Source: Lachnospiraceae bacterium (GTDB taxonomy: Bacteria; Bacillota; Clostridia; Lachnospirales; Lachnospiraceae). From it: a stretch of 64,000 bases of DNA. Positions 36,968 to 55,157 of the stretch are shown here, one piece after another (positions within the stretch are counted from its first letter, which is position 1; the number at the start of each line of letters is the position of its first letter). The stretch spans positions 16,260 to 80,259 of the forward strand of contig JAILRO010000054.1 of the NCBI GenBank assembly GCA_024698145.1, given 5' to 3'. A program made the translations under genes and the position numbers. The notes below the pieces were generated by a model that did not search any database, was not told the DNA's origin, and saw only the letters and a program-made list of their open reading frames with translations.

Positions 36968-37012
36968 TCGCATCGGAGCAAAATCCGGTGCGATTTTTGT
37001 ATAGACGAGTAA
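36968..37012 (+). repeat. Interspersed terminator-type repeat, copy 3
   Basis: Stem TCGCATCGGA (36968-36977) / TCCGGTGCGA (36984-36993), T-run, GTATAGACGAGTAATA. It sits directly after the truncated toxin. Confidence 0.85.
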
Positions 37013-37998: not shown

Positions 37999-38040
37999 AT
38001 CGCATCGGAATAAAATCCGGTGCGATATTTGTATATATGG
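37999..38040 (+). repeat. Interspersed terminator-type repeat, copy 4
   Basis: Stem ATCGCATCGGA (37999-38009) / TCCGGTGCGAT (38016-38026), then ATTTGTATATATGGG. The T-run is interrupted by one A, so this copy is the weakest terminator. It separates the Lrp unit from the restriction system. Further on, TAACGC (38130-38135) and GCGTTA (38142-38147) form a small inverted repeat before hsdM. Confidence 0.8.
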
Positions 38041-38195: not shown

Positions 38196-39704
38196 ATGGC
38201 ATCAAAGACTAATGCTAACATAGGATTTGAAAAACAGTTATGGGATGCGGCGTGTGTATTGTGGGGACACATTCCAGCGGCTGAGTATCGTAAGGTTATT
38301 ATCGGATTGATATTCCTTCGTTATATTTCAGCGGCTTTTGATAGAAGATATCAAGAACTCGTTGATGAGGGTGATGGATTTGAAGATGACATTGATGCAT
38401 ATACAATGGAGAATGTTTTCTTCGTTCCGGAAGAAGCTAGATGGAATACAATTGCATCAGCCGCTCATACCCCTGAGATTGGTACGGTGATTGATAATGC
38501 AATGCGTGCTATTGAAGCAGATAATAAAGTTCTTAAGAATGTACTTCCTAAGAATTATGCAAGCCCAGACCTCGATAAGAGAGTATTGGGTGAAGTCGTA
38601 GATATCTTTACCAACAATATCGATATGAGTGACACTGAGGCGAGTGAAGATCTCCTCGGTCGTACTTATGAATATTGTATTGCTCAGTTCGCGGAAAAGG
38701 AAGGTGTAGGTGGTGGAGAATTCTATACACCGTCAAGCGTAGTAAAGACATTGGTTTCTATTCTTAGACCGTTTGAAAATTGTCGTGTGTATGATTGCTG
38801 CTGTGGTTCTGGTGGTATGTTTGTTCAGAGTGCTAAGTTTATTGAAGCTCATTCCGGCAACAGAGGGGCTATTTCTGTATATGGTCAAGAGGCAAATGCA
38901 GATACATGGAAGATGGCAAAAATCAATATGGCTATCCGTGGTATTGATGCGGACTTTGGGCCTTATCAGGCAGATACATTCACAAATGATTTACACCCAA
39001 CTTTAAAGGCAGATTTCATTCTTGCAAATCCCCCATTTAACTATCATCCGTGGAATCAGGATAAATTGGTCGATGATGTTAGATGGAAATATGGTTTACC
39101 GCCAGCAGGAAATGCCAACTATGCTTGGATTCAGCACATGATTCATCATCTTGCTCCTAACGGAAAGATAGGATTGGTCTTAGCGAATGGTGCGCTTTCA
39201 ACACAGACTAGTGGTGAAGGAGATATTAGAAAAAATATTATAGAGGACGACTTGGTTGAAGGTATTATCGCAATGCCTACACAGCTTTTTTACAGCGTAA
39301 CAATTCCGGTAACACTTTGGTTTATTACTAAGAATAAAAAGCAGACTGGTAAGACGTTATTCATTGATGCAAGAAACATGGGACACATGGTTGACCGTAA
39401 GCATCGTGACTTTGATGATAAAGATATCCAGAAGCTCGCAGATACATTTGAAGCATTCCAAAATGGAACACTTGAGGATGTAAAGGGATTCTGTAAGGTT
39501 GCTGCAACAGAAGAGATAGAGAAACAGGATTATATCCTTACTCCAGGTAGATATGTTGGTATTGAAGAGCAGGAAGATGATGGCGAACCATTTGAAGAAA
39601 AAATGGGAAGATTAACATCAGAGCTTTCTGAAATGTTTGCAAAATCTCATGAACTCGAAGCTGAGATTAGAAGAAAGTTGGGGGCTATTGGATATGAAAT
39701 CTAA
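38196..39704 (+). CDS. hsdM: Type I restriction-modification methyltransferase subunit HsdM
   Basis: The N6-adenine methyltransferase of a type I system. Motif I is DCCCGSGGM at 200-208, motif IV NPPF at 278-281, and the signature GEFYTPSSVVKTL lies just before motif I. Full length is 502 residues, normal. GGAGG before ATG 38196. Its last codons overlap the start of hsdS1, which begins 11 bases before the stop. It pairs with HsdS to form the methylase and with HsdR at 44534 to form the nuclease. Confidence 0.96.
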   Translation: MASKTNANIGFEKQLWDAACVLWGHIPAAEYRKVIIGLIFLRYISAAFDRRYQELVDEGDGFEDDIDAYTMENVFFVPEEARWNTIASAAHTPEIGTVIDNAMRAIEADNKVLKNVLPKNYASPDLDKRVLGEVVDIFTNNIDMSDTEASEDLLGRTYEYCIAQFAEKEGVGGGEFYTPSSVVKTLVSILRPFENCRVYDCCCGSGGMFVQSAKFIEAHSGNRGAISVYGQEANADTWKMAKINMAIRGIDADFGPYQADTFTNDLHPTLKADFILANPPFNYHPWNQDKLVDDVRWKYGLPPAGNANYAWIQHMIHHLAPNGKIGLVLANGALSTQTSGEGDIRKNIIEDDLVEGIIAMPTQLFYSVTIPVTLWFITKNKKQTGKTLFIDARNMGHMVDRKHRDFDDKDIQKLADTFEAFQNGTLEDVKGFCKVAATEEIEKQDYILTPGRYVGIEEQEDDGEPFEEKMGRLTSELSEMFAKSHELEAEIRRKLGAIGYEI

Positions 39705-40254
39705 TTGGAAAGAATATTGTTTGGGAGATATAGTTTCATTAGTAATTGATCATAGAGGCTTAACCCCTAAAAAGCTAGGTGGAGATTGGGCTAACGAAGG
39801 ATATAGAGCGCTATCGGCAAAAAATGTTAAAACAGGAAGAATTGTGCAACCAAATAGTATTAGATATGTGGACGATGAGATGTATCATCGATGGATGCCT
39901 GATGAGATAGAACGTGGAGATATTTTAGTTACATCAGAAGCCCCTTTTGGAGAAGTTCTTCAGTGGAATTCTGATGAAAAAATTATATTAAGTCAAAGAT
40001 TGTTTGGTTTAAGAATATCAGAAGAATTTAATTCGGATTACGTATATCACTATATGACAACTACAGCGTTCTTAGCAGAAATGCATTCAAGAGCGACTGG
40101 AACTACTGTTATTGGTTTAAGACAGCCTGAATTATTAAAATGCAAGCTTTTTTGTCCTGATATCGAAACGCAGAACAAAATAGCGTCTTTGTTAAATGGA
40201 TTAGATAGGAAAATAGAATTAAATGAACGTATAAACGATAATTTAGCAGCTTAG
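39694..40254 (+). CDS. hsdS: HsdS1, truncated at an inversion site (one target-recognition domain)
   Basis: ATG 39694 overlaps the hsdM stop. The 186 residues hold one target-recognition domain and the conserved helix LDRKIELNERINDNLAA; translation ends just after inversion site A. Full HsdS needs two domains (about 400 residues, like HsdS2). The rest of this protein lies inverted in 40251-40880. An inversion between sites A and B would join NERINDNLA to EQARIMFKQRL in frame and restore a complete subunit. The 186-residue form might still dimerise to read a symmetric target, as shown for some truncated HsdS proteins. Confidence 0.9.
   Translation: MKSNWKEYCLGDIVSLVIDHRGLTPKKLGGDWANEGYRALSAKNVKTGRIVQPNSIRYVDDEMYHRWMPDEIERGDILVTSEAPFGEVLQWNSDEKIILSQRLFGLRISEEFNSDYVYHYMTTTAFLAEMHSRATGTTVIGLRQPELLKCKLFCPDIETQNKIASLLNGLDRKIELNERINDNLAA
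40231..40254 (+). repeat. Inversion site A
   Basis: ATAAACGATAATTTAGCAGC begins here at the end of hsdS1. The core AAACGATAATTTAGC (40233-40247) is found inverted at 40897-40911 (perfect 15 bases) and at 43714-43728. With site D the match extends over 23 of 24 bases. Confidence 0.9.
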
Positions 40255-40880
40255 ATGTCGAGGTTGGAAACATCCAGTTCACCGGACATTAGCCGAGGCA
40301 GCAATGTGTCACGTAACTCGGCAAGCCGTCGATTTTCCTCGTTATTGGAGGCGATACTATCGAAAATCGTTATTATTGCATTAGTGAAATCCGTATCGTC
40401 TTGCTGCGGTTCAGGAATAACACATGCATTCAAATCAAGTGGCTTAATTGACGGATACGTGGATACACTTTGTTCTGCCAGCTGATGCATTTTCTCCACA
40501 AAAGTTGGATCAGTTAGTGCAAGGTATATAATTTCATTCGGAATAGTCTTTCTTTTGCTACGGATCACGGCGAACCCAGTTGAGCCGAGCATATTCGGCA
40601 ATGGATTTGAGATAATACCGTAATGTAACTGGTTAGGTCGCACTGTGGAATATACAATATCGTTTTTGCGGAGTATCCTGCGAGCTCGACTTGGAAGTTT
40701 TTCTTGAGATGGTTGAATACACTGAACCTCTGCAATAGTACCATTTGTGATGTTACTGGTATCGAGATAATTAACAAATTCCCAATTATCTTTTGTTGAA
40801 TAGGTTTCCGGGTTAATATCAGCAATCTCTGCAAGATGGCACAAAGACCCTGTAGCATCTGTAAGCCGTTGTTTGAACAT
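40251..40880 (-). CDS. Inverted HsdS C-terminal half cassette (silent)
   Basis: Read on the minus strand, the frame runs through site B (…NDNLAEQARI) into MFKQRLTDATGS and a second target-recognition domain, ending LMSGELDVSNLDI. It has no promoter or ribosome site of its own: the internal Met at 40880 is only the first Met after the repeat. It is the C-terminal half that hsdS1 lacks, parked in reverse. Its base composition looks richer in G+C than hsdS1, hinting at separate ancestry. Confidence 0.85.
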   Translation of the reverse strand: MFKQRLTDATGSLCHLAEIADINPETYSTKDNWEFVNYLDTSNITNGTIAEVQCIQPSQEKLPSRARRILRKNDIVYSTVRPNQLHYGIISNPLPNMLGSTGFAVIRSKRKTIPNEIIYLALTDPTFVEKMHQLAEQSVSTYPSIKPLDLNACVIPEPQQDDTDFTNAIITIFDSIASNNEENRRLAELRDTLLPRLMSGELDVSNLDI

Positions 40881-40896
40881 TATACGAGCTTGCTCA

Positions 40897-40913
40897 GCTA
40901 AATTATCGTTTGT
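40897..40913 (-). repeat. Inversion site B
   Basis: GCTAAATTATCGTTTGT on the plus strand, the complement of AAACGATAATTTAGC. It lies at the 5' end of the inverted half cassette, in frame with its reading frame. Confidence 0.9.
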
Positions 40914-40943
40914 AGAAACTATTAATAAACAGGAGAAGGAAAA

Positions 40944-41273
40944 ATGACAATAGAAGAGACTGCAGAAAAATTACGTGTAAATAAAAAAACAGTTGAAAAA
41001 TGGTGTGAGAAGAAATGGATTAGAGGTGTAAAAAAGGAGAAAAACGGAATGTATAATATTCCACAAAGTGTAAAAAGACCTTATTTTAAAAGAAGAGCGA
41101 AAGGTGATTCTATTTATACTAGTATTGTGAAGGCGGTTTTGGAGGGGTGTGACACTTCAGCTGCACTCTATGGTTTAAGTGACGATGAATATGAAAAATA
41201 CATTTGTCAACTGAAAGATGCAGGAGTGATTGATTCGTATGTTGATTCGTTTACGGGAATTAGTTATTTATGA
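40944..41273 (+). CDS. Small HTH protein, candidate recombination-directionality factor (109 aa)
   Basis: A winged-helix/MerR-like helix-turn-helix (MTIEETAEKLRVNKKTVEKWCEKKWIRG) is followed by a basic stretch (KRPYFKRRAKG) and a helical C-terminus. AGGAGAAGG before ATG. Its position between site B and the recombinase, size and basic nature fit an excisionase-type protein that steers inversion. A plain transcription regulator is the alternative. Confidence 0.65.
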   Translation: MTIEETAEKLRVNKKTVEKWCEKKWIRGVKKEKNGMYNIPQSVKRPYFKRRAKGDSIYTSIVKAVLEGCDTSAALYGLSDDEYEKYICQLKDAGVIDSYVDSFTGISYL

Positions 41274-41399
41274 ATGACACCCCAAAGTAGTGATTTTTCA
41301 AAACTTAGCGTGAATAGGATAAAGAGTTTTCTTAAAGATGCAAAGATGAATATAAGTGTGAATGTAGGAATTAATATAATGTAGGTTTAGACAATTCTC

Positions 41400-41438
41400 A
41401 TCAACGGCGAGAATAAAGCCAACAGAACAGCCGTTGAT
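41400..41438 (+). other. Hairpin in the leader of the recombinase gene
   Basis: ATCAACGGC (41400-41408) pairs perfectly with GCCGTTGAT (41430-41438) around a 21-base loop, 35 bases before ATG 41473 in the 199-base gap after the HTH gene. There is no T-run, so it is not a simple terminator. It may affect translation of the recombinase. Confidence 0.5.
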
Positions 41439-41472
41439 ATCGTTCTCTGGAAAGAAATGAAGGAGATACGAT

Positions 41473-42459
41473 ATGAAAGATGAATTAATAACAGAAGTAA
41501 TGCAGAGGATGTTGCCATACTTAGATAACGCTCAATTAAAGAGGTTGAAAATAGTTATGAGTCAGACGTTCTCTGATTATAAGGTAAAGAATGTAGAAGA
41601 TAAGTTGGAAAAGGACGATAATGGTGAAATTATAACAATGTTTATATCTTCTAAAAGAGTTGAAGGATGCTCTGAAAAAACCTTGAAGTATTATCGTAAT
41701 ACAATTGATGATATGATTTCAGTAATTAACAAGAATGTTCGTCACATACTCACCGAGGATTTGAGAAAATATTTAACCGATTATCAAACTAAAAATCAGA
41801 CAAGTCGGGTAACAATAGATAATATTCGTCGGATTTTGTCTAGTTTTTTTTCATGGCTAGAGGATGAGGATTATATTATCAAGAGTCCCGTACGACGTAT
41901 TCATAAGATCAAGACGTCAAGTTGTATAAAAGAGACATATTCGGATGAAGATTTGGAAAAGTTGCGTGACAATTGTGATGAGTTGAGAGATTTAGCAATG
42001 ATTGATTTGCTTGTATCAACAGGAATGCGTGTTGGAGAAATGGTGATTTTAAACCGTGGTGATATTAATTTTACAGAAAGAGAGTGCATTGTGTTTGGTA
42101 AAGGAAATAAAGAGCGGATAGTGTATTTTGATGCCAGAACGAAGTTGCACTTAAAGAAGTACCTTGATAGTCGCACAGACGATAACCCTGCTCTTTTTGT
42201 AACGCTTCGTGCACCATACAAACGTTTACAAATCGGTGGTGTGGAGTGTAGACTTAGAGAACTCGGGAGAAGAATGAGTATTGTTAAAGTTCATCCACAT
42301 AAATTTAGACGAACACTTGCTACAATGGCAATTGATAAGGGTATGCCTATAGAACAGTTACAGAGACTTTTGGGGCATCAAAGAATAGATACGACATTGC
42401 AGTATGCGATGGTTAAACAGTGTAATGTAAAAAATGCACATAGAAAATATATAAGTTAG
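41473..42459 (+). CDS. Tyrosine recombinase of the hsdS inversion system
   Basis: The 328-residue integrase has the full catalytic set: Arg186 (STGMRVGEM), Lys210, His276-x-x-Arg279 (HKFRR), His302 (LLGHQ) and Tyr311 (LQYA). The N-terminal SAM-like domain covers about 45-150. AAGGAG precedes ATG, and hsdS2 starts 9 bases after the stop. It should act at sites A-D. No attachment sites or tRNA ends for chromosomal integration are seen nearby, which supports a local invertase role. Confidence 0.93.
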   Translation: MKDELITEVMQRMLPYLDNAQLKRLKIVMSQTFSDYKVKNVEDKLEKDDNGEIITMFISSKRVEGCSEKTLKYYRNTIDDMISVINKNVRHILTEDLRKYLTDYQTKNQTSRVTIDNIRRILSSFFSWLEDEDYIIKSPVRRIHKIKTSSCIKETYSDEDLEKLRDNCDELRDLAMIDLLVSTGMRVGEMVILNRGDINFTERECIVFGKGNKERIVYFDARTKLHLKKYLDSRTDDNPALFVTLRAPYKRLQIGGVECRLRELGRRMSIVKVHPHKFRRTLATMAIDKGMPIEQLQRLLGHQRIDTTLQYAMVKQCNVKNAHRKYIS

Positions 42460-42468
42460 GATGGTGAA

Positions 42469-43710
42469 ATGATGGATAATTGGAAAAAGGTTATACTATC
42501 CGATGTACTAAAGGAAAAGGGATATATTCGAGGACCTTTTGGGTCAGCATTAAAACGAGCAGAATTGTTATCAGAGGGAATTCCTGTATATGAGCAACAG
42601 CACGCTATATATAACAGTCGTGATTTTCGCTTTTATATAGATGAAAAAAAACTCGTGGAAATGAAACGATTTCAAGTGAAAACAAATGATTTGATTATAA
42701 GTTGTTCGGGTACGGTCGGTAAGGTGTCAATTATTGAGGATGACGCCCCTAAAGGAATTATTAGTCAAGCATTATTGCTTTTGCGAGTTAATGAAGATGT
42801 TATCTTGCCGTTATATTTGAAGTATTTTTTTACATCACGAGAGGGATATAACGCAATAGTGTCTCGGTCAAGTGGATCTGTTCAGATAAATATATCGAGG
42901 CGAAATGTGATTGAAAACATTCCATTATACCTACCGTCGCTTGATATCCAGCAAAAGATTGTAGGAATATTATCCAGTGTTGATGAAAAAATACGAAAGA
43001 ATAATGAAATAAACGATAATTTAGAGGAGCAAGCGTTAGCCCTTTTCCGTCATTACTTCATGGATTTTGCACCATATGGCGGTGTTGCTCCTTCTAACTG
43101 GAAAGAAGTATCGCTAGATGATGTATGTACCCGGATAACTGACGGATCGCACTATAGTCCCGCAGATGCTCCTGAATCTCCATACCCTATGTATTCCGTC
43201 AAGGATATGGAAACTTATGGTTTCAACTCTTCGTCCTGTAAGCACATCTCCGAGGAAGATTTCCGAAAAATGCAAAAAGGCGACTGTGTTCCTCTGCTTA
43301 ATGACATCTTGGTCGCTAAGGATGGCAGTTATCTGAAAGCGATATTCATCTGTTCCGAAGAGAAAGAAGAAGCAATACTTTCATCCATCGCTATTTTTAG
43401 ACCAGATACAAATATCATAATTCCAGAGATTCTCCTATACCTCCTTAAGCAGCCTTCCGTTCGAAAAGATGTAGGCGATAACTATGTTTCTGGCTCAGCA
43501 TTACCAAGAATAGTCCTTAAAGACTTCAAGAAATACCGTTTTATGCTTCCACCAATGGATGAACAGCTGAAAATTGGTTCTGTACTTCATACAATTAGGA
43601 TGCAAACCAAGGCAAAGATCGACGAAATACAGTGCTTGTCATCCACGAGAGATGCACTCTTACCAAAGTTGATGTCTGGTGTGCTGGATGTCTCTGATAT
43701 TGACCTCTAA
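42469..43710 (+). CDS. hsdS: HsdS2, full-length specificity subunit
   Basis: The 413 residues carry two target-recognition domains (about 1-190 and 200-413), with the conserved spacer helix INDNLEEQALALFRHY between them and LMSGVLDVSDIDL at the end. Site C lies inside the codons for the central helix, and site D lies after the stop. Its C-terminal half can thus be swapped with the inverted cassette or removed. As read, it is the only complete specificity subunit in the locus. It starts 9 bases after the recombinase stop, with GATGGTG as a weak ribosome site. Confidence 0.92.
   Translation: MMDNWKKVILSDVLKEKGYIRGPFGSALKRAELLSEGIPVYEQQHAIYNSRDFRFYIDEKKLVEMKRFQVKTNDLIISCSGTVGKVSIIEDDAPKGIISQALLLLRVNEDVILPLYLKYFFTSREGYNAIVSRSSGSVQINISRRNVIENIPLYLPSLDIQQKIVGILSSVDEKIRKNNEINDNLEEQALALFRHYFMDFAPYGGVAPSNWKEVSLDDVCTRITDGSHYSPADAPESPYPMYSVKDMETYGFNSSSCKHISEEDFRKMQKGDCVPLLNDILVAKDGSYLKAIFICSEEKEEAILSSIAIFRPDTNIIIPEILLYLLKQPSVRKDVGDNYVSGSALPRIVLKDFKKYRFMLPPMDEQLKIGSVLHTIRMQTKAKIDEIQCLSSTRDALLPKLMSGVLDVSDIDL
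43011..43024 (+). repeat. Inversion site C
   Basis: AAACGATAATTTAG inside hsdS2, encoding the NDNL of the central helix, in the same orientation as site A. The next bases (AGGAGCAAGCG) match the site-B flank GAGCAAGC. Confidence 0.9.
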
Positions 43711-43730
43711 GCCGCTAAATTATCGTTTAT
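43707..43730 (-). repeat. Inversion site D
   Basis: CTAAGCCGCTAAATTATCGT begins here, running from the hsdS2 stop outward. On the minus strand it reads almost exactly as site A, with one difference in 24 bases. Confidence 0.9.
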
Positions 43731-44533: not shown

Positions 44534-47500
44534 ATGACGTCATTATACACGGAAGCTGATTATGAAAACTCAATAATAGAGCTATTTCAAGAAATGGGAT
44601 ATCAGCATATATATGGACCTGATGTTGAGAGAGATTTTACTAATCCTTTATTTGAATCAGAATTACTAGCTGCGTTATCAAGGATTAATCCAGATATGCC
44701 TTCCGATGCGATTTCAGATGCATTATTCAAACTTAAGAATTTTGAAAATGCTGATTTAGTACAGAAGAATGCTGTGTTTATGGATTATTTGCAAAATGGT
44801 ATCGAAGTGCGTTATTTAGTAAAGGGTGAAGAACACTCAGGACTGGTATATCTAATTGACTATAAAAATCCGTCTAATAATTCTTTCGTAGTAGCTAATC
44901 AATGGACGTTTGTTGAAAACAGTAACAAACGTCCGGATGTTTTGCTATTAATAAATGGATTGCCACTTGTATTAATTGAATTAAAATCCCCATCTAGAGA
45001 AGAAACAGATGCATCTGAAGCATATATGCAGATTCGTAATTATATGCACGAAATTCCTTCAATGTTTATCTACAACTGTATTTGTGTAATGAGTGATCAC
45101 CTTACATCAAAAGCAGGTACCATAACATCTGGCGAAGACAGATTTATGGAGTGGAAGACCAAGGATGGTAATTATGAGAATACGCAATATGCTCAGTTTG
45201 ATACTTTCTTCGAAGGTATTTTTGGCAAAGAGAGATTTCTGGATATCATAAAGAATTTTATCTGCTTTTCGAATGAGGGCATTAAAAAAGTAAAAATTTT
45301 AGCTGGATACCATCAGTATTTTGCTGTAAATAAGGCTGTGATATCAACTAAAAATGCGACAGAGACAGACGGTAAGGGTGGTGTTTTTTGGCATACACAA
45401 GGTAGTGGTAAATCCTTATCTATGGTTTTCTATGCTCATTTGCTTCAGGATGCTTTAGAGAGTCCTACAATTGTTGTTATTACAGATAGGAATGATTTGG
45501 ATGACCAGCTTTTTGGACAGTTTGCAAAGTGCAAAGATTTCTTGCGTCAGGAACCGATACATGCCGAGAGTAGAGAACACCTTAAAACATTATTAGATGG
45601 TCGTAAAGCAAATGGAATCATTTTTACTACGATGCAAAAGTTTGAAGAATCAGATGAGCCGTTATCAGAGAGAAGAAACATTGTTGTGATGGCTGATGAA
45701 GCACATCGTGGTCAGTATGGTTTAAAAGAAAAGGTTGATGCTAAAACAGGTGAGATAAAAATTGGTACAGCAAGAGTAATCAGAAATAGTCTGCCAAATG
45801 CTACATATATCGGCTTTACAGGTACTCCGATTTCTATGAAGGATAGAAGTACAAGAGAAGTATTTGGTGACTATATTGATGTTTATGATATGACACAGGC
45901 CGTTGAAGATGGGGCTACACGTCCTGTTTATTATGAGAGTCGTGTAATTAAGCTTAAACTGGATCAGGATACACTAAAGCTTATAGATGCAGAGTATGAC
46001 ATTATGGCAAATAATGCTGATCCTGAAGTTATCGAGAAAAGTAAGAAGGAACTCGGCCAGATGGAAGCAATACTCGGAAATGATGAAACGATTGCTTCTT
46101 TAGTAGATGATATCTTAGATCATTATGAGAATAACCGTGAAAATCTTTTGACTGGAAAAGCTATGATTGTAGCCTATTCTCGTGCAATTGCATTAAAAAT
46201 CTATCGTCGAATATTAGAGATTCGTCCAGGATGGGAAGAAAAAGTTGCTGTAGTAATGACGGAGAGTAATAAAGATCCGGAAGATTGGCGAGGAATTATT
46301 GGAAATAAACGACATAGAGATGAATTGGCGAAAGAGTTTAAAGATAATGAAAGTCCTTTGAAAATAGCGATAGTTGTAGATATGTGGCTCACGGGATTTG
46401 ATGTGCCATCTCTTGCGACAATGTACGTGTACAAGCCTATGCAGGGATATAATTTGATGCAGGCTATCGCTCGTGTTAATAGAGTATTCGAAGACAAAGA
46501 AGGTGGGCTTGTCGTTGATTATGTAGGTATTGCATCTGCTCTTAAGCAGGCGATGAATGATTACACAATAAGAGATAAAAAGAACTATGGTGATACAGAT
46601 ATTGCAACGGTAGCATATCCAAAATTCTTGGAAAAACTTTCTGTGTGTCGAGATTTATTCCATGGTTATGATTATTCAAAATTTACCAATGGTATAAATC
46701 TTGAAAGATCAAAAGCCATTAGTGGAGCTGTAAACTTTATTGTTGATGTGAATAGAGAAAAGGAACGGGAGGATTTCTTAAAAGAGGCATTATTACTACG
46801 TCAAGCATTGTCATTGTGCTCCTCTCTTGCAGAAGAAGAACTTCGAATTGAAGCAGCGTTCTTTGAGTCTGTTCGCGTTCTTGTAATGCGAATTATGAAT
46901 AAAGGTGAAGGGAAGAAGATTTCTTTGCCGGAAATGAATGCAAGGGTTAACGCTCTGTTGGAACAGAGTATCAAGAGTACAGGAGTTATTAATTTATTCT
47001 CTGATGTTAATGGAGATTTCTCTTTATTTGATCCAAAATTCTTAGAGGAAATTGGTAAAATGAAAGAGAAAAACCTTGCAGTTGAGTTGTTGAAAAAACT
47101 GATTTCAGAGCAAGTTATTATTTACAAACGTACCAACGTTGTTAAGTCTGAAAAATTTAGTGAAATTATTCAGCAGGCAATGAACAGATATCTTAATGGA
47201 ATGCTTACCAATGAGCAAGTTATTGAAGAATTACTTAATCTTGCCAATCAAATTCAGGCTGCTCAACAAGAAGGACAGAAACTGGGACTCACAGCAGATG
47301 AATTGGCGTTTTATGATGCGTTAACGAAACCACAAGCTATAAAGGATTTTTATGAGAATGAAGAACTAATAGCTATCACTAAGGAATTGGCTGATGCATT
47401 AAGAAAGAATAAGACGATAGATTGGCAGAAACGTGATTCCGCTAGAGCGAAAATGCGTATGCTTATTAAGAAACTTTTGAAGAAACATAAGTATCCGCCA

Positions 47501-47635
47501 GAGGGCATGGATGATGCAGTTCAGACAGTTATGCTTCAGTGTGAACTTTGGACGGATAATAATGATATGATGGAAAAAAGAGTGATAAAATACGCTTCTA
47601 GAATGGGGGAGTATGTTTCCGAAATCAATAAATAG
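44534..47635 (+). CDS. hsdR: Type I restriction endonuclease subunit HsdR
   Basis: The 1033-residue DNA translocase-nuclease has the nuclease site RPDV (Asp135), then IELKSP (Glu149, Lys151), Walker A TQGSGKS at 288-294, DEAH in MADEAHRGQYG, and later helicase motifs (TGTPIS, VDMWLTGFD, MQAIARVNR). All are intact, so the protein looks active. AGGAGGAAGG before ATG. Together with hsdM and either hsdS it completes the restriction system. Confidence 0.96.
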   Translation: MTSLYTEADYENSIIELFQEMGYQHIYGPDVERDFTNPLFESELLAALSRINPDMPSDAISDALFKLKNFENADLVQKNAVFMDYLQNGIEVRYLVKGEEHSGLVYLIDYKNPSNNSFVVANQWTFVENSNKRPDVLLLINGLPLVLIELKSPSREETDASEAYMQIRNYMHEIPSMFIYNCICVMSDHLTSKAGTITSGEDRFMEWKTKDGNYENTQYAQFDTFFEGIFGKERFLDIIKNFICFSNEGIKKVKILAGYHQYFAVNKAVISTKNATETDGKGGVFWHTQGSGKSLSMVFYAHLLQDALESPTIVVITDRNDLDDQLFGQFAKCKDFLRQEPIHAESREHLKTLLDGRKANGIIFTTMQKFEESDEPLSERRNIVVMADEAHRGQYGLKEKVDAKTGEIKIGTARVIRNSLPNATYIGFTGTPISMKDRSTREVFGDYIDVYDMTQAVEDGATRPVYYESRVIKLKLDQDTLKLIDAEYDIMANNADPEVIEKSKKELGQMEAILGNDETIASLVDDILDHYENNRENLLTGKAMIVAYSRAIALKIYRRILEIRPGWEEKVAVVMTESNKDPEDWRGIIGNKRHRDELAKEFKDNESPLKIAIVVDMWLTGFDVPSLATMYVYKPMQGYNLMQAIARVNRVFEDKEGGLVVDYVGIASALKQAMNDYTIRDKKNYGDTDIATVAYPKFLEKLSVCRDLFHGYDYSKFTNGINLERSKAISGAVNFIVDVNREKEREDFLKEALLLRQALSLCSSLAEEELRIEAAFFESVRVLVMRIMNKGEGKKISLPEMNARVNALLEQSIKSTGVINLFSDVNGDFSLFDPKFLEEIGKMKEKNLAVELLKKLISEQVIIYKRTNVVKSEKFSEIIQQAMNRYLNGMLTNEQVIEELLNLANQIQAAQQEGQKLGLTADELAFYDALTKPQAIKDFYENEELIAITKELADALRKNKTIDWQKRDSARAKMRMLIKKLLKKHKYPPEGMDDAVQTVMLQCELWTDNNDMMEKRVIKYASRMGEYVSEINK

Positions 47636-47884: not shown

Positions 47885-47963
47885 GAGTTGTTGATGTATT
47901 AAGTAAAAAAACGAATGCGCTAGGTGTGTGTTGTGTATAAAACTAAATAGGAGGATGTGGTTA

Positions 47964-50102
47964 ATGAAACTAGTCGAAATGAGCATTACGAATTACAGAC
48001 AATTTGAAAAGGCTGATATATCATTTGATGATGGAATAACTGTACTGGCGGGAGCTAATAATAGCGGAAAAACATCGCTTATAACATTAATAAAAAATAT
48101 ATTTAATGATGAAAAAAGCATATATTGTGAATCGGATATTCCTGCAAAGAATATGCAGAATTGGATTGGTCAAGTTTATCCAATATTTGAAACATTTTTT
48201 TTGGGGAATGCTGCTATTGAAAAAATAGAAGAAGATTTGGTTGAGTTTATTCTTTCGAAAGATGAGAAGGCACAGCAAATATGCATAGATACTACCAGAT
48301 TAAGAGTTCACGTATCATATAATCCTGAAATAGATGATATAAAATATTTTGCGGATTATATCATGGATTTGGATGAGGATAAGCATGATTTTTTCTTCGA
48401 ATATTATTATGAGATTAAGAGAACTAAATTTATTAAAGCCATTTCCAAAGAATTTGAGAAGCTAAAAAAGAGATTTGAAGAAATTCAGAACAATAAGGTG
48501 AGATTATCAGACTTTACAGAGGAAAGGGAAAAACATAATATTGAGATTAAAGAACGATATCTAAAGCAGAGATTAGTTGCATTATACGTTAATTCAATTG
48601 TTCCAACATGCTATTTTTGTGATGCAACCTATGAAAATAGGTGTCAGATTGATGATGTAAAGCAATTTAGAAATCTATTTAATTTTTGTTTTATTAAAGC
48701 AAGCAGACCTTTAGATGATGATGCGTCAGATCATTCTCGTTCCATCAGCAAACAAATGATTAAATTGGCCCAATTAGATGGTGAATGGAATGAACTGATA
48801 GATAAGTTACCAGATGATATTTTAAAACCTATTCAAGATAAAGAAATTAGCAAGAAGGTTCAGGAAACGTCTCTAAATTCATTAAAAGAGACAATTACGG
48901 CTGTTGAAGAGACAAATGGTGGGCAATCTGGCGAATTGATGTTGGATATGCTTGTAACAGAAGAGGATATCAGCGATTTACTACAAAGAATCACAACGGC
49001 TACATATTGTGTTGACGGTTATTTCCTTGGTGAAGAATCACAGGGATTAGGTTATAGCAATATGATATATATTCACCTTCAGCTGAACAAATATGAAAAT
49101 AGTAAAGATAGATGCAAGGTAAATGTTTTTTTTGTTGAAGAACCAGAATCTCACATGCATCCTCAAATGCAACAAGTATTTGTAAAATATCTAATTGAGC
49201 ATTACAAAGATGGGATACAGGGTTTGATTACAACGCATTCAAATGAAATGGTGCGTGTGGCAGGGATAACGCATTTACGTGTTATTAGAAGAACAGGTAG
49301 TTTTTTGAGTGAACTCTATGATCCGTCAAAATTGATTAATGGATTACAAGCATCAAATAATCCTGATGATAAGCTGTTAGCAAATTTTTATGATTGGTTT
49401 TTTGAGATTGGCTATTCAGAACTTGTCTTTGCGGATAAAGCTATTTTTTATGAAGGAGATACTGAAAGATTATATATCCGAAAGCTTCTTACATTGGAAA
49501 AATATAAAAAACTTAAGCAGCAGTACATTGCTTACATTCAGGTTGGCGGAGCATATGCAAAGAATTATAGACAAATGATTGAGCTATTAGGTATAAAATC
49601 ATTAATTATTACAGATATAGATTATTCTAAGGATGCAGAAACAGTAAATGAAATAAACGATTCAATAATAACAAATGCAACAATAAAAGAGTTTTATAGG
49701 ATTGATAATCCAGAGAGCACACCAACGGTTAAGGATTTATATGAGTGGAAGGCTTCAAACAAAAATATTATAAGCGATGGCTTGATTTATACATGCTTTC
49801 AAACAAAAGATGATGGGTATGCTAGGACTCTTGAAGAGGCAATGCTTTCACAGTATTTCTCTACGGATGTTACTATGAGTTTTACTAAAAAGGAATGGAT
49901 TAAAAAGAGAGCGGATTCAAGGCTGGAATTTGTTATTCCAACAAAAGGAATAAAAGATGAGGATCCAATTAAATTGCGAGCTATTTTAAAATCGATATCC
50001 GGTTCAAAAACAAACTTTATGTATTCTGTAGTTCTCAATAAAAAAGCAGAAGAAACTGAACCAAATTATATTCGGGGAGGCTTGGAATGGTTGATGGAAT
50101 AG
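47964..50102 (+). CDS. OLD-family ATPase with TOPRIM domain, Gabija GajA-like
   Basis: ATG 47964 lies 9 bases after AGGAGG, giving 712 residues. Walker A is ANNSGKTSL at 31-39, the ABC-type signature region reads EESQGLGYSN, Walker B is FFVEEPE, and a TOPRIM domain follows in the last third (EGDTERLYIRKLL, ITDIDYSKDAE). OLD-type ATPases cut DNA. The UvrD-like helicase gene overlapping its end is the definition of class 2 OLD and of the Gabija defence system. It is longer than GajA (about 580 residues), with extra coiled sequence at about 140-230. Confidence 0.8.
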   Translation: MKLVEMSITNYRQFEKADISFDDGITVLAGANNSGKTSLITLIKNIFNDEKSIYCESDIPAKNMQNWIGQVYPIFETFFLGNAAIEKIEEDLVEFILSKDEKAQQICIDTTRLRVHVSYNPEIDDIKYFADYIMDLDEDKHDFFFEYYYEIKRTKFIKAISKEFEKLKKRFEEIQNNKVRLSDFTEEREKHNIEIKERYLKQRLVALYVNSIVPTCYFCDATYENRCQIDDVKQFRNLFNFCFIKASRPLDDDASDHSRSISKQMIKLAQLDGEWNELIDKLPDDILKPIQDKEISKKVQETSLNSLKETITAVEETNGGQSGELMLDMLVTEEDISDLLQRITTATYCVDGYFLGEESQGLGYSNMIYIHLQLNKYENSKDRCKVNVFFVEEPESHMHPQMQQVFVKYLIEHYKDGIQGLITTHSNEMVRVAGITHLRVIRRTGSFLSELYDPSKLINGLQASNNPDDKLLANFYDWFFEIGYSELVFADKAIFYEGDTERLYIRKLLTLEKYKKLKQQYIAYIQVGGAYAKNYRQMIELLGIKSLIITDIDYSKDAETVNEINDSIITNATIKEFYRIDNPESTPTVKDLYEWKASNKNIISDGLIYTCFQTKDDGYARTLEEAMLSQYFSTDVTMSFTKKEWIKKRADSRLEFVIPTKGIKDEDPIKLRAILKSISGSKTNFMYSVVLNKKAEETEPNYIRGGLEWLME

Positions 50103-52033
50103 AAAATATTTATCTTGTGAATGCACCAGCTGGGAGTGGTAAAACAACATGGATTCGCAAACAGGTTGAAAAACATTTACTTGAAAATGAGAACGATAGT
50201 ATTTTGTGCATAACTTATACAAATCGTGCTGCAGAAGAATTGGGAAAAGATATAGATTCTGAAAGAGTCTTTTTTGGTACAATACACAGCTTCATAAGTA
50301 ATTACATTGGAAGTTTTTTTGAACATAGGGCAATAATTGATTTATATTGGGAATTATACAAAGACGTAATAGAGCAAAGGATAAACAATGTAGAAAATAA
50401 AGTAAATATTGCGGATAGCAATTCAAGATATATAGAAAAATATGGATCATTGAGTCTTGAAACAGTGTATTCGAATTTGAAAAAAATAAGTTATGGAGAA
50501 ACCCAATTTACGTCGTGGTATTATGGATCATTAAGCCATAATGACTTATTATCATTTACCAAGAAAGTTGTCGAGAAATATCCTATTATTCTAAAAAAGA
50601 TTCGTGATAAATATCAGCTTGCTTTTATAGATGAGTATCAGGATACAAATGCAGATGTTCTCAAACTTTTTTGCTCGTCGATGGTATCTAGTACAGGAAA
50701 GCTGTATTTGTTAGGCGATAAGATGCAACAGATATACAAGAATTATGATGGGAGTTTTGAAGATACGTTCAGGTTGTTGAATAAATCTACGCGATTAGAT
50801 GTAAATTATAGAACGACTCCGTATATTGTTAATATACTGAATGCTATATATAATGATGAGACATTACAACAGCATTCTTATGGGGAGAATTCGGATAAGC
50901 AAATGTTGTTTAAGCCTAAAATCATTTTTACAAATGATAGGATTAAGACAGTTAACACATTTACAGAGGAAAATAAAGATGCTTTAGTTTTGTATTTAAC
51001 AAATAAGGATCGTTTTCATGGTATTGGTGTTGGAAGTCTGTATGATGCTTATAGAAAAATACATAAGTATGATTATTCAGGTAAATACGGCGTTGCTGAT
51101 GTACTTACAAAAGAAGAAGTTTGGAGTCAGGATATTCTTTTGAGTGTGATTTTTTCTCTTGTTGATATTTGTGATTTTTATCTGAACGGAAAATTAGGAG
51201 ATGTATTTAAAATTGCACGGAGTAATGAAAAGGTATTTAACAAATATACTTTTCTAATTAGAAATCATGGTGATAAAAAGGTTTTGCGAGATAAGTTAGA
51301 ATGGGTGGTTGTGAATTATCAAAGAAAGGACTCTACTATAGGTTCATTTCTTAAGAGTTGTTGCGATGAAGGCGTTATAGAGGAAGAATATTATGGTGGA
51401 ATTATGGATGAGGAAGACTATGTTCCTGCGCTGGAAGTTGCATTATCTGAAATAATATTATTAAAGAAATACTTAAGTAATCCATATATTTCGACGCAGC
51501 ATGGAGTAAAAGGAGAAAGCCATGATACTGTTTTATTTGTAGCAGAGGATAACTCTAGAAATCCCATTGTAAGCATGAACAAATTTTTCGAGCTATGGAG
51601 CAAGGTAGATGTAATGTTAGGTTCTTTTGATGATTTTTATTATGCTTATTTAAAATTGATTAAGAGTATTGAGAAAGAATGTAGCATTAAAATTTCAGAG
51701 ATGAAAGCGGATGATTATAATCAAAATGAAGAGTTTATTTTAAAAAAAATAACGGAATTCAGTGATGTGTATTGTGATAATGATTATTATATCGAGCTTT
51801 TAAAAGAAGCGTTTGACGCATATATGGAAAAGAAGAATAAAGGAAAGGCACAATCGTGCTTGAAAGAAAATTCTGTTTATGGGGTATTGGCAGCTTATCG
51901 ACTTTTTTACGTTGGGTGTTCTAGAGCACGTAAAAATCTGGCAATAGTTATTGATAATTCGGATGTGGCTGCTTTTAAAGAACGATTAAAGACCAAGTTT
52001 AAAGATGTTGGTTTTGAAATCGAGGAGAGTTAA
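50087..52033 (+). CDS. UvrD/Rep-like helicase, Gabija GajB-like
   Basis: The start overlaps the ATPase gene by 16 bases with GGGGAGG upstream. Walker A is NAPAGSGKTT at about residues 12-21, TYTNRAAEEL and GTIHSF follow, motif II is FIDEYQDTNAD, motif III/IV LLGDKMQQIY and VNYRTTPYIVN, motif VI FYVGCSRARKNL. All core motifs are kept. At 648 residues it is longer than GajB (about 490). In Gabija the helicase works with GajA against phage DNA; this inference depends on the pairing. Confidence 0.8.
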   Translation: MVDGIENIYLVNAPAGSGKTTWIRKQVEKHLLENENDSILCITYTNRAAEELGKDIDSERVFFGTIHSFISNYIGSFFEHRAIIDLYWELYKDVIEQRINNVENKVNIADSNSRYIEKYGSLSLETVYSNLKKISYGETQFTSWYYGSLSHNDLLSFTKKVVEKYPIILKKIRDKYQLAFIDEYQDTNADVLKLFCSSMVSSTGKLYLLGDKMQQIYKNYDGSFEDTFRLLNKSTRLDVNYRTTPYIVNILNAIYNDETLQQHSYGENSDKQMLFKPKIIFTNDRIKTVNTFTEENKDALVLYLTNKDRFHGIGVGSLYDAYRKIHKYDYSGKYGVADVLTKEEVWSQDILLSVIFSLVDICDFYLNGKLGDVFKIARSNEKVFNKYTFLIRNHGDKKVLRDKLEWVVVNYQRKDSTIGSFLKSCCDEGVIEEEYYGGIMDEEDYVPALEVALSEIILLKKYLSNPYISTQHGVKGESHDTVLFVAEDNSRNPIVSMNKFFELWSKVDVMLGSFDDFYYAYLKLIKSIEKECSIKISEMKADDYNQNEEFILKKITEFSDVYCDNDYYIELLKEAFDAYMEKKNKGKAQSCLKENSVYGVLAAYRLFYVGCSRARKNLAIVIDNSDVAAFKERLKTKFKDVGFEIEES

Positions 52034-53440: not shown

Positions 53441-55156
53441 ATGAATAGTGAGATTAAACTCGACACAAAATTGGTCGGGGATATAAAAGGCGATTTCTAT
53501 GTTCCATCATATCAGCGTGGATATAGGTGGGGAGAGACAGAGGTAGTTCGTTTGCTGGATGATATTTATTCTACTGAAGGCAAAAGGAACTACTGTCTTC
53601 AGCCAGTGGTAGTAAGAAAAAATGGTGACAGATATGAACTGATAGATGGTCAGCAGCGGTTAACAACAATCTACCTTATCTACCGCTTTATGAATGAAGA
53701 GAGCTTTGGCTTTATAGATGAGCCGAGATTTACATTATCTTATGAAACCAGAGAGAAGTCTGAGGACTTCTTGAAATCAATTGACGAATCCCGTAAAGAG
53801 GAGAACATTGACTTCTGGTTCCTTTGTGCTGCTTATGAGAGTATCAAAAAATGGTTTTATGGAAGAGATAGAAAATCAACGCTTACAAATGTGAACAAGT
53901 ACTTTGATGAAATTGTGAAAATCATCTGGTATGAAGTAGGCGAATCTGAAGATGCCATTGGTCTTTTTACTCGTCTGAACATTGGTAAGATTCCACTTAC
54001 CAATGCTGAACTTGTAAAAGCTATGTTCCTTAGTAAAGATACAGATGAAAATGTTGATAAGAAAAAACAGGAAGAGATATCTCTTCAGTGGGATAATATG
54101 GAGAAGGAACTGCACAACAACTCATTGTGGTATTTCCTGACGAATAAGACAAATGCTGACTACCAGACAAGAATTGATCTCGTGCTGGACCTTATTTCTG
54201 GTAAGCCTGCTGACAATAGAGAAAAGTATTATACGTTCTTCAAATTTGATAAGATGCGCCAGGTCAATACACTGGATAGTATTTGGCGGAGCATTCAGCA
54301 GACATTTTTAGTGTTGAAGGATTGGCATGGTAACCATGAACTATATCATAAGATTGGTTATATTATCGCTTCTGACACGCTTACACTTCAGAATATATTT
54401 GAACTGTCCAAGGATAGGACAAAGGATGACTTCAGGAATTCTCTGGATAGCTTTATTCGAGACAGTATTAAAATTAAAGGTAACTATTCAGATCTAAGTT
54501 ACGAAAAGCCTATGGATCAGAAGAGGATTACAAAATTGCTCCTCTTGTTTAATGTCGAATCTGTTCGAAGAAACGGTGAACACTCGCAGTGGTTTCCGTT
54601 TGATAAATACAAATTTGGTAAGGGCGGCAAAGTCGTCTGGAGTCTTGAACATATCCATGCTCAGCAGTCAGAAGGCCTAAGAACGCAGGAAATGTGGAAA
54701 GAATGGCTCAAACTCCACATTCCGTCTGTTAAATCAGTAAGCTATGATTCGGATGAATTAATAAAACTCATGGACGGCGCAATCGCAAAGGATAAGTTGG
54801 AACGTCAAGAATTCGATGCAATACAGCAGAAGGTTGTAGACTTGCTTTCTGTAAAGGGTAATACAGAATATATGCATTCTATTGCGAATATGGCTTTGCT
54901 TAGTTCGACGGACAATGCCGCATTGAATAACTCGACTTTTGATGTTAAGAGAAATGAAATTATCAAGATGGATAAGGCTGGTCAGTATATTCCGTTTTGT
55001 ACAAGGATGGTCTTCTTGAAATACTATACACCGTCTTCTGATAACCAACTTCATTTCTGGGGACATGCAGATAGGGTTGCCTATGTTGATGCTATTAATA
55101 CGGTATTGGTAAATTATCTCGAAGAGCCCATTGTTCTGGAAAAGGAGGAAGAATAA
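53441..55156 (+). CDS. DUF262/DUF1524 protein, GmrSD-like, first of a tandem pair
   Basis: At 571 residues it has the DUF262 N-terminus with the ParB-like site YQRGYRWGE and ELIDGQQRLTTIYL, and the C-terminal DUF1524 HNH-like region with SLEHIHAQQSEG. This arrangement is that of GmrSD-type modification-dependent restriction proteins and related defence nucleases (SspE and others). AAAGGGAGTG precedes ATG. The second DUF262 gene starts one base after its stop. Confidence 0.85.
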   Translation: MNSEIKLDTKLVGDIKGDFYVPSYQRGYRWGETEVVRLLDDIYSTEGKRNYCLQPVVVRKNGDRYELIDGQQRLTTIYLIYRFMNEESFGFIDEPRFTLSYETREKSEDFLKSIDESRKEENIDFWFLCAAYESIKKWFYGRDRKSTLTNVNKYFDEIVKIIWYEVGESEDAIGLFTRLNIGKIPLTNAELVKAMFLSKDTDENVDKKKQEEISLQWDNMEKELHNNSLWYFLTNKTNADYQTRIDLVLDLISGKPADNREKYYTFFKFDKMRQVNTLDSIWRSIQQTFLVLKDWHGNHELYHKIGYIIASDTLTLQNIFELSKDRTKDDFRNSLDSFIRDSIKIKGNYSDLSYEKPMDQKRITKLLLLFNVESVRRNGEHSQWFPFDKYKFGKGGKVVWSLEHIHAQQSEGLRTQEMWKEWLKLHIPSVKSVSYDSDELIKLMDGAIAKDKLERQEFDAIQQKVVDLLSVKGNTEYMHSIANMALLSSTDNAALNNSTFDVKRNEIIKMDKAGQYIPFCTRMVFLKYYTPSSDNQLHFWGHADRVAYVDAINTVLVNYLEEPIVLEKEEE

Positions 55157-55157
55157 T

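What the first reader, a model, noticed from the sequence alone, without database searches (positions are those of the whole stretch)
39694..43730. Type I restriction locus with four inversion sites and two swappable HsdS halves
AAACGATAATTTAG occurs four times: plus at 40233 (A) and 43011 (C), complement at 40898-40911 (B) and 43715-43728 (D). Sites A and C lie at the centre of the two hsdS genes or their truncated end, and B and D at the outer ends of two C-terminal half cassettes. A tyrosine recombinase and a small HTH gene lie between them. A-B, C-D, A-D or B-C inversion would give up to four HsdS combinations; A-C or B-D directed repeats could delete the intervening genes. hsdS inversion by recombinases is established elsewhere; the nested four-site layout with the recombinase inside the segment is the point of interest.
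Basis: partly seen in the sequence, partly recalled or inferred. Interest (0 to 1): 0.85.

Follow-up and report, generated by a model that had tools for sequence, protein, structure and literature searches.

The report
One-at-a-time flipping DNA-targeting gene pair
A bacterial DNA-defence operon carries two front halves of a DNA-targeting gene and two reversible back-half cassettes that likely flip and swap places, so that exactly one complete targeting gene exists here and in 86 of 89 other related loci whose cassettes could be read at both ends.

Summary
In detail: four identical 14-bp sites (+ - + -) cut a Type I restriction-modification operon into two hsdS front halves, two C-terminal half cassettes and a middle piece holding a tyrosine recombinase. 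The layout is not a one-off: of 186 non-duplicate loci with a relative of this recombinase, 125 gave candidate sites and 90, the window included, show all four with clean ends. The general site is NAAA-N6-TTTA; its spacer differs between loci but agrees at the two front-half ends in 75 of 77 loci. In 87 of 90 loci the cassettes point in opposite directions, so exactly one hsdS is complete; two have none and one (a 3.2-kb contig) has both. Which gene is complete shows no phylogenetic signal (29 changes; shuffled mean 29.0). Near-identical Lactococcus plasmids carry the same cassettes flipped, swapped or duplicated at 100% identity. Likely mechanism: recombinase-driven shuffling giving four possible specificities, one at a time. 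What enforces the rule (selection, or recombination geometry) is open. New variant of phase-variable Type I systems.

The parts
38196..39704 (+). hsdM, Type I methyltransferase subunit
   Evidence: Pfam N6_Mtase E 1.6e-107 and HsdM_N; PADLOC MTase_I
39694..40254 (+). S1N: front half of hsdS1 (TRD1 plus start of the central region), 186 aa, ending NDNLAA-stop at site A; start codon overlaps the end of hsdM
   Evidence: Pfam Methylase_S on the front half E 2.4e-14; sequence
40232..40245 (+). site A (TAAACGATAATTTA): end of S1N and tail of cassette X
40251..40912 (-). cassette X: C-terminal hsdS half in reverse orientation, from head (site B) to stop codon beside site A
   Evidence: open frame NDNLAEQA...LDVSNLDI; no Pfam hit at E 0.001, but natural full-length HsdS proteins carry it at 55-64% identity
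40899..40912 (-). site B: head of cassette X
40944..41273 (+). small excisionase-type HTH gene, a local addition
   Evidence: HTH_17 E 9.9e-6 and 'excise' E 1.2e-4, both under the curated cut-off; no match in 89 relatives
41473..42459 (+). tyrosine recombinase R (XerA-like), 328 aa
   Evidence: Phage_integrase E 7.3e-31; NF040815 E 5.8e-71, above its cut-off; TGMR at 183, HKFR at 276, GH at 301, QY at 310 (their reading as the catalytic set is recalled)
42469..43710 (+). hsdS2, complete now: S2N (to site C) plus cassette Y, 413 aa
   Evidence: Methylase_S, two stretches, E 3.1e-28
43010..43023 (+). site C: end of S2N and head of cassette Y
43716..43729 (-). site D: tail of cassette Y, just after its stop codon
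43742..44524 (+). 260-aa protein of unknown family between hsdS2 and hsdR; rare companion
   Evidence: no Pfam, NCBIfam or PADLOC hit; 3 of 89 relatives
44534..47635 (+). hsdR, restriction and motor subunit
   Evidence: TIGR00348 E 7.2e-185

Best explanation
This is a Type I restriction-modification operon in which two hsdS front halves and two C-terminal half cassettes, bounded by four identical 14-bp sites, are likely shuffled by the tyrosine recombinase encoded between them, and exactly one hsdS gene is complete here and in 86 of the 89 other four-site loci read. Shown by sequence: the anatomy, the within-locus agreement of the site spacer, the opposite orientation of the cassettes, the lack of phylogenetic signal in which gene is complete, and the same cassettes flipped, moved or swapped between near-identical relatives. 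Inferred: that R makes the cuts at the NAAA-N6-TTTA sites; that each of the four joins (S1N-X, S1N-Y, S2N-X, S2N-Y) gives a working specificity subunit and so a different methylation and restriction target; and that states with two or no complete hsdS arise by single local flips but are short-lived, because cells with one specificity are favoured. In the present state S2N-Y is complete, while S1N is cut short by a stop codon carried in the reversed tail of cassette X.
For: Sites: four exact copies. Family: 90 clean four-site loci among 186 non-duplicate loci; median distances A-B 667, B-C 1631, C-D 673. Spacer: in the 77 of 90 loci where both front-half ends were located separately it is the same in 75, against 14% between loci. 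Rule: 87 of 90 antiparallel, P 1e-22 for independent cassettes; 3 of 46 clusters at 90% R identity hold a parallel member, P 2e-10; an earlier, separately written pass over fewer loci gave 71 of 72. Turnover: class of complete gene 29 changes, shuffled mean 29.0, while the spacer, a heritable trait, gives 27 against 59. Observed rearrangements: L070/L071, about 99.8% identical from R to the right flank, have cassette P inverted in place (99.77%) with both ends at the core sites. Lactococcus plasmids with the same R protein: pJM2A (P+=u, Q-=v), pUCCL627F (P+=v, Q-=u, 100%), pJM1A (P-=u, Q+=u, 100%). Natural HsdS proteins join relatives of S1N to X (16) and S1N to Y (8, one at 91%/90%) among 238 fetched. 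Silent cassettes stay open: 82 of 82 read at least 167 codons (the four-site filter already asked for 100). Precedent: PsrA inverts an hsdS C-half at a 15-bp repeat in vivo and in vitro (PMC4948785 and PMC7096588, passages).
Against: No reads or methylomes: not one inversion was seen within a single culture, and none in the window's own species; an assembly shows one consensus order and can hide a mixture. R's action on these sites is by analogy. Counter-examples to the rule: L060 and L205 (none complete), L223 (both complete, whole contig 3,168 bp); by eye among partial loci, L055 and L019 look like none-complete and L066 like both-complete. L204 does not fit the scheme. In several close pairs the second cassette was replaced by an unrelated one, so gene exchange between lineages also acts. 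L139 (silent) and L088 (active) each hold a cassette with an early stop. The selection step is not tested: M-inverted loci, where the orphan cassette has no effect on the number of complete genes, are also antiparallel (5 of 5, plus L027 by eye), which pure selection does not require. S2N-X was not met among the 238 proteins fetched.
Confidence: 0.72

Rival explanations
1. Recombination geometry, not selection, keeps the cassettes antiparallel. Only the long-range exchanges happen (head with head, tail with tail, giving inversions A-D and B-C, plus excision and reintegration of a circle holding the recombinase), and none of these can make the cassettes parallel; local flips A-B and C-D are rare.
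For: The long inversions and the circle route conserve antiparallel order (derived). Like ends share extra sequence: A/D 60 nt at 82%, B/C 24 nt at 92%. pJM2A to pUCCL627F is exactly the double long-range swap at 100%. L052/L063 and L086/L102 hold one cassette at the other place in the same orientation, as one excision-reintegration would give. M-inverted loci are antiparallel 5 of 5. Excision-reintegration of hsdS pieces by a tyrosine recombinase is shown at the pneumococcal tvr locus (PMC6265443, abstract and one section).
Against: In-place flips are seen: L070/L071, L102/L134, pJM2A/pJM1A; three exchanges each would be needed under this model. Parallel loci exist (3 of 90). If long inversions were frequent, the middle piece should be inverted in half of the loci; it is in 5 of 89 with known orientation.
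Confidence: 0.3
2. The rearrangements are made by general homologous recombination between conserved head, tail and front-half sequences, and the recombinase plays little part.
For: Conserved head and tail stretches exist; some rearrangements at pneumococcal hsdS loci persist without the local recombinase (PMC6265443 section; PMC6620402, title in a listing only).
Against: Spacers differ between loci but agree within a locus, also at D, which lies outside any gene; breakpoints fall at the 14-bp cores; a possible start of the second hsdS lies 4-17 nt behind the stop of R in 83 of the 84 loci where one was found, so the two genes are a fixed pair.
Confidence: 0.1
3. The switch is dead or very slow; the different orders are old, fixed differences between lineages.
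For: No within-culture data; several near relatives keep the same order (L053/L054, L074/L079/L103/L105).
Against: No phylogenetic signal in the class; different orders in plasmids with the same R protein and identical cassettes; silent cassettes remain open.
Confidence: 0.06

Closest known systems
Pneumococcal cod / SpnIII locus with PsrA (PMC4948785, PMC7096588: passages)
   Same: Type I locus with a tyrosine recombinase gene inside; a 15-bp repeat exchanges the C-terminal TRD of hsdS by inversion; one working hsdS.
   Different: [quoted passage not shown] three repeat classes of 15, 298 and 85 bp. Here both hsdS front halves read in the operon direction, one class of four sites is used, and silence comes from a truncated gene.
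Listeria monocytogenes ST8 and CC4 inverting hsd loci (PMC4783014, PMC7662400: passages)
   Same: Two hsdS genes flanking an integrase or recombinase, four TRD combinations, shuffling evident between close isolates.
   Different: The two hsdS genes are oppositely oriented, with two repeat classes (5' end and centre) (ST8); the second hsdS lacks a proper start and a promoter (CC4).
Lactobacillus reuteri LreRMII with lsrA (PMC6122466: passages)
   Same: hsdR, two hsdS, a recombinase between them, hsdM; TRDs seen in different arrangements among laboratory derivatives.
   Different: Both genes are described as having two TRDs; no half cassettes or one-complete rule described in the passages read.
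Pneumococcal tvr (SpnIV) locus with TvrR (PMC6265443: abstract and one section)
   Same: A tyrosine recombinase shuffles hsdS pieces and itself lies in the moving segment.
   Different: Direct repeats and circular intermediates; no four-site + - + - layout described in what was read.
Gut inverton group 145 overlapping restriction subunit S genes (PMC11892184: passages)
   Same: Invertons that overlap hsdS genes, in a group also enriched for tyrosine-type recombinase genes, in a defined gut community.
   Different: No description of the four-site architecture or the orientation rule in the passages read; whether it is the same family was not tested.

Membership tests
Type I restriction-modification system | hsdR, hsdM and hsdS together | tested here: met
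Phase-variable (inverting) Type I system | more than one hsdS or hsdS part with inverted repeats inside the gene | tested here: met
Phase-variable (inverting) Type I system | recombinase gene in the locus | tested here: met
Phase-variable (inverting) Type I system | different orders of the same cassettes in near-identical relatives | tested here: met
   relatives, not the window's species:
Phase-variable (inverting) Type I system | switching within one clone, with changed methylation | not testable with these tools
   no reads or methylomes
cod/Listeria layout (one expressed hsdS, second hsdS in opposite orientation) | silent second hsdS on the opposite strand without its own start | tested here: not met
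   S2N has an ATG on the operon strand 9 nt behind the stop of R; hsdM lies on the same strand as R and S2N in all 81 M+ relatives in which it was matched
tvr excision-reintegration | circular intermediates between direct repeats | not testable with these tools
   A/C and B/D are direct copies, but no circle can be detected from sequence
Tyrosine recombinase, XerA-like | score above curated cut-off | tested here: met
   NF040815 239.1 bits, cut-off 220

The most novel reading that the evidence does not exclude
A DNA-recombination form of allelic exclusion: the recombinase and its four sites keep two half cassettes antiparallel by the geometry of the exchange itself, so that switching between four specificities never passes through two complete genes. 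The truncated front half left behind, closed by a two-way stop at a fixed place, would be a product in its own right: a half-HsdS that pairs with itself to read a palindromic target, adding up to two more specificities.
Probability: 0.2. Interest if true: 0.85.

Novelty: new variant of a known kind. Interest (0 to 1): 0.62.

Why it matters
Known phase-variable Type I systems hold to one specificity per cell by keeping silent hsdS copies away from a promoter or start. Here both genes face the operon direction, and exclusivity is written in the relative direction of two cassettes. With 90 loci in one frame, the question of what prevents two specificities in one cell becomes directly testable with a four-site plasmid. 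The site rule (NAAA-N6-TTTA, spacer matched within a locus) also gives a simple way to find and read the state of such switches in genome data, where lone half hsdS genes are annotated as separate subunits (for example).

Tried and rejected
Deletion by A-C or B-D: no evidence, but the survey was keyed on R and would miss loci that lost it. HTH gene as a conserved directionality factor: rejected for the family (no match in 89). Half-HsdS as a working product: kept only as a novel reading. [quoted passage not shown] and pneumococcal deleted or truncated hsdS alleles gave no methylation signal (PMC4948785, passages). Like-end-only recombination as the sole rule: not adopted because in-place flips are seen. 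Promoter scan: 20 promoter-like sites against 25.5 in shuffles, uninformative. lines for X and Y are void (wrong reading frame in my script); redone. One search picked the wrong strand of the near-palindromic core for some loci and was replaced. Rows dropped before the counts: loci under L018 (among them L016, a fragment), L152, L153, L209-L211, duplicates L097, L099, L100, L129 (R DNA identical to L110), L135, L136, L217, L218, L220, L222, and L214 (same order as L207, 99.85% identical); L194-L201 had no R match at the threshold. Of the 186, 61 gave no sites, most of them with R under about 66% identity (one search lists 56 of that kind). Literature: no description of the layout or rule was found in searches (held open-access library only; listings, and passages of the papers named).
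Full report
Observation. They cut the operon hsdM, hsdS1, recombinase, hsdS2, hsdR into five pieces: S1N (front half of hsdS1), cassette X (C-terminal half, reversed), a middle piece M (HTH gene, recombinase R, S2N), cassette Y (C-terminal half, forward) and the downstream part (orf260, hsdR). Each cassette has a head (reads NDNL, then xEQA...) and a tail (its stop codon followed by a site). Read the other way, the tail gives NDNL-AA-stop, so a front half facing a reversed cassette is closed two codons after the site. Now S2N-Y is complete (413 aa), while S1N stops at 186 aa. X and Y are clearly different recognition halves: the best local match is 37% over 52 residues.

How common is it. Genome searches gave matches in 8 of 26 genomes of the genus (E 1e-60), 26 of 397 of the family (1e-110), 21 of 393 of the class (1e-100), 20 of 206 of another family (1e-100), 6 of 398 of the phylum (1e-100) and 17 of 392 of the order (1e-135); these sets overlap. 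Four small families gave 2 of 17, 2 of 13, 1 of 12 and 1 of 18, seeds included. IMG/VR gave 31 loci, plasmids 13 records and phage records 4; I fetched 11 of the 13 plasmid records and 1 of the 4 phage records. After removing duplicates, 186 loci were examined: 125 gave candidate sites of the form NAAA-N6-TTTA, and 90 show all four, two on each side of R as the search design asks, with one head and one tail per cassette. Organisms named in the listings run from Lachnospiraceae and Ruminococcus to Listeria, Streptococcus, Enterococcus and Lactococcus, and include MAGs labelled Succinivibrionaceae and Spirochaetia.

The site. In the 90 loci 13 different six-base spacers occur (CAATAA 22, CAAGAA 16, CGATAA 15, TGATAA 12, CGAGAA 8, TCATCA 5, seven others 12 in all). 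One search looks for copies within one mismatch of a locus's own core, so agreement there is partly built in. The separate test is: the end of S1N and the end of S2N were located by open frame and loose pattern alone, which worked in 77 of the 90 loci; the spacer is the same in 75, against 14% for ends from different loci. The two exceptions (L079, L084) are other, nearby matches to the loose pattern; both loci carry the CAATAA spacer at all four sites. A conserved pair of short arms around a variable stretch that must match between partners is what the known chemistry of tyrosine recombinases would ask for (recalled). Part of this is protein constraint (N-x-N-L), but copies at D, outside any gene, follow the same spacer.

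The rule. In 87 of the 90 loci X and Y point in opposite directions: 82 with M in the operon direction (44 with the second gene complete, 38 with the first) and 5 with M inverted, where hsdM lies on the other strand. Three are parallel: L060 and L205 (none complete) and L223 (both complete, on a contig of 3,168 bp). Independent cassettes would give half; P is 1e-22 for all loci, and 2e-10 when loci are clustered at 90% recombinase identity and a cluster counts as parallel if any member is (3 of 46). An earlier pass with separate code over fewer loci gave 71 of 72. Among the 35 loci with sites but incomplete calls, 11 more with M direct or unknown read as antiparallel by eye (L170, L225, L139, L088, L107, L128, L096, L056, L045, L093, L042), as does L027 with M inverted; L055 and L019 look like none-complete and L066 like both-complete, each at or near a contig end (L019 also has a different spacer at C); L204 is rearranged, L113 has Ns and L216 has one cassette. 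The remaining partial loci show too little. With M inverted the two front halves face each other across one cassette, so exactly one is complete whatever the other cassette does; the orphan cassette is still antiparallel in 5 of 5.

It turns over. On a tree of the 90 recombinases (quick method) the class (first or second gene complete, 87 loci) needs 29 changes, the same as shuffled labels (mean 29.0, sd 2.4, 300 shuffles), while the spacer needs 27 against 59. Of 11 clusters with several members, 8 hold both classes. Close pairs show the steps. L070 and L071 (about 99.8% from R to the right flank, 97% to the left) have P inverted in place, 99.77%, with ends at the cores, and unrelated Q cassettes; L102 and L134 have Q inverted in place, 99.3%. 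Lactococcus plasmids pJM2A, pUCCL627F and pJM1A carry the same recombinase protein, WP_081196211.1; pUC073A is 99.85% identical to pJM2A over 12.9 kb. pJM2A and pUC073A carry u forward at P and v reversed at Q; pUCCL627F carries v forward at P and u reversed at Q; pJM1A carries u at both places with the second gene complete. Over 16 cassette pairs between loci at 95% or more, 3 are in the same place and orientation, 4 same place flipped, 4 moved in the same orientation, 5 moved and inverted; 6 of the 16 come from the Lactococcus plasmids. Four Ligilactobacillus salivarius plasmids give second-on, second-on, none, and one (L204) that does not fit the scheme.

Products. Two protein searches (queries S2 and the predicted S1N-X, so the sample is biased; 3704 and 7467 hits, best 120 of each listed) gave 238 proteins. 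At 55% or more in both halves, 16 join relatives of S1N and X, 8 S1N and Y (P0024: 91% and 90%), 4 S2N and Y including the window's own, none S2N and X. So three of the four joins are met as natural relatives.

Mechanism. R is a XerA-like tyrosine recombinase. A possible start of the second hsdS lies 4-17 nt behind the stop of R in 83 of the 84 loci where one was found, so its expression is probably tied to that of R. I commit to: R recombines the four sites, local and long-range, and the order with exactly one complete hsdS is the one that lasts. The first part is well supported by pattern and precedent (PsrA; passages); the second is inference. The rival, that the exchange itself keeps the cassettes antiparallel, explains the M-inverted loci and the swap pUCCL627F/pJM2A well, but not in-place flips without extra steps. 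The first part does not depend on which is right.

Half products. 157 of 180 tails stop the incoming front half at the same codon, and 174 within 12 codons. This may only reflect common descent of the tails. A working half-HsdS is possible in principle (engineered M-half-S is active, passages of PMC6158711), but pneumococcal deleted or truncated alleles gave no methylation (passages of PMC4948785).

Novelty. Inverting hsdS genes are well known. In the papers seen, the second hsdS is a silent copy in the opposite orientation or the layout is otherwise different; the four-site layout with two front halves in one direction and the one-complete rule were not found in eight searches of a held open-access library, of which I read listings and passages. 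Subscription journals are mostly absent, so it may be described elsewhere.

Noticed in passing
47958-52033: Directly after hsdR lies a GajA-type ATPase/TOPRIM gene (PADLOC GajA E 1.2e-255) followed by a 648-aa protein that looks like a UvrD-type helicase (50087-52033, by eye), so probably a Gabija system; two proteins that look like DUF262 family members (by eye) follow at 53441-57341. A defence island.
   Followed up: partly
L107 (G000 contig 56, 4,556 bp): The same genome holds a second locus of the kind: recombinase 68% identical, spacer TGATAA instead of CGATAA, cassettes antiparallel from three sites, contig too short to show hsdM.
   Followed up: partly
L216, L. sakei plasmid pRV500: A one-cassette version: two front halves face each other across a single cassette, so a single flip would move it from one gene to the other.
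   Followed up: no
L212: pJM1A carries the same cassette u at both places, 100% identical, so copies can be duplicated as well as moved.
   Followed up: no
L086: One locus has six sites and three cassettes, two of them with the same head peptide.
   Followed up: no
40912-41473: The stretch from site B to the recombinase start is 58-116 nt in 61 M+ relatives and 318-990 nt in 22; the window (574 nt) is of the longer kind and holds an excisionase-like HTH gene with no match in 89 relatives.
   Followed up: partly
L171-L189, L202-L208, L212-L214: Relatives of the locus occur on IMG/VR contigs and on plasmids, one typed as conjugative, so the system probably moves between hosts.
   Followed up: no
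36968-37003 and 38000-38035: Two copies (92%) of a 36-nt hairpin-like repeat, TCGCATCGGA..TCCGGTGCGAT, the second one terminator-like upstream of hsdM.
   Followed up: no
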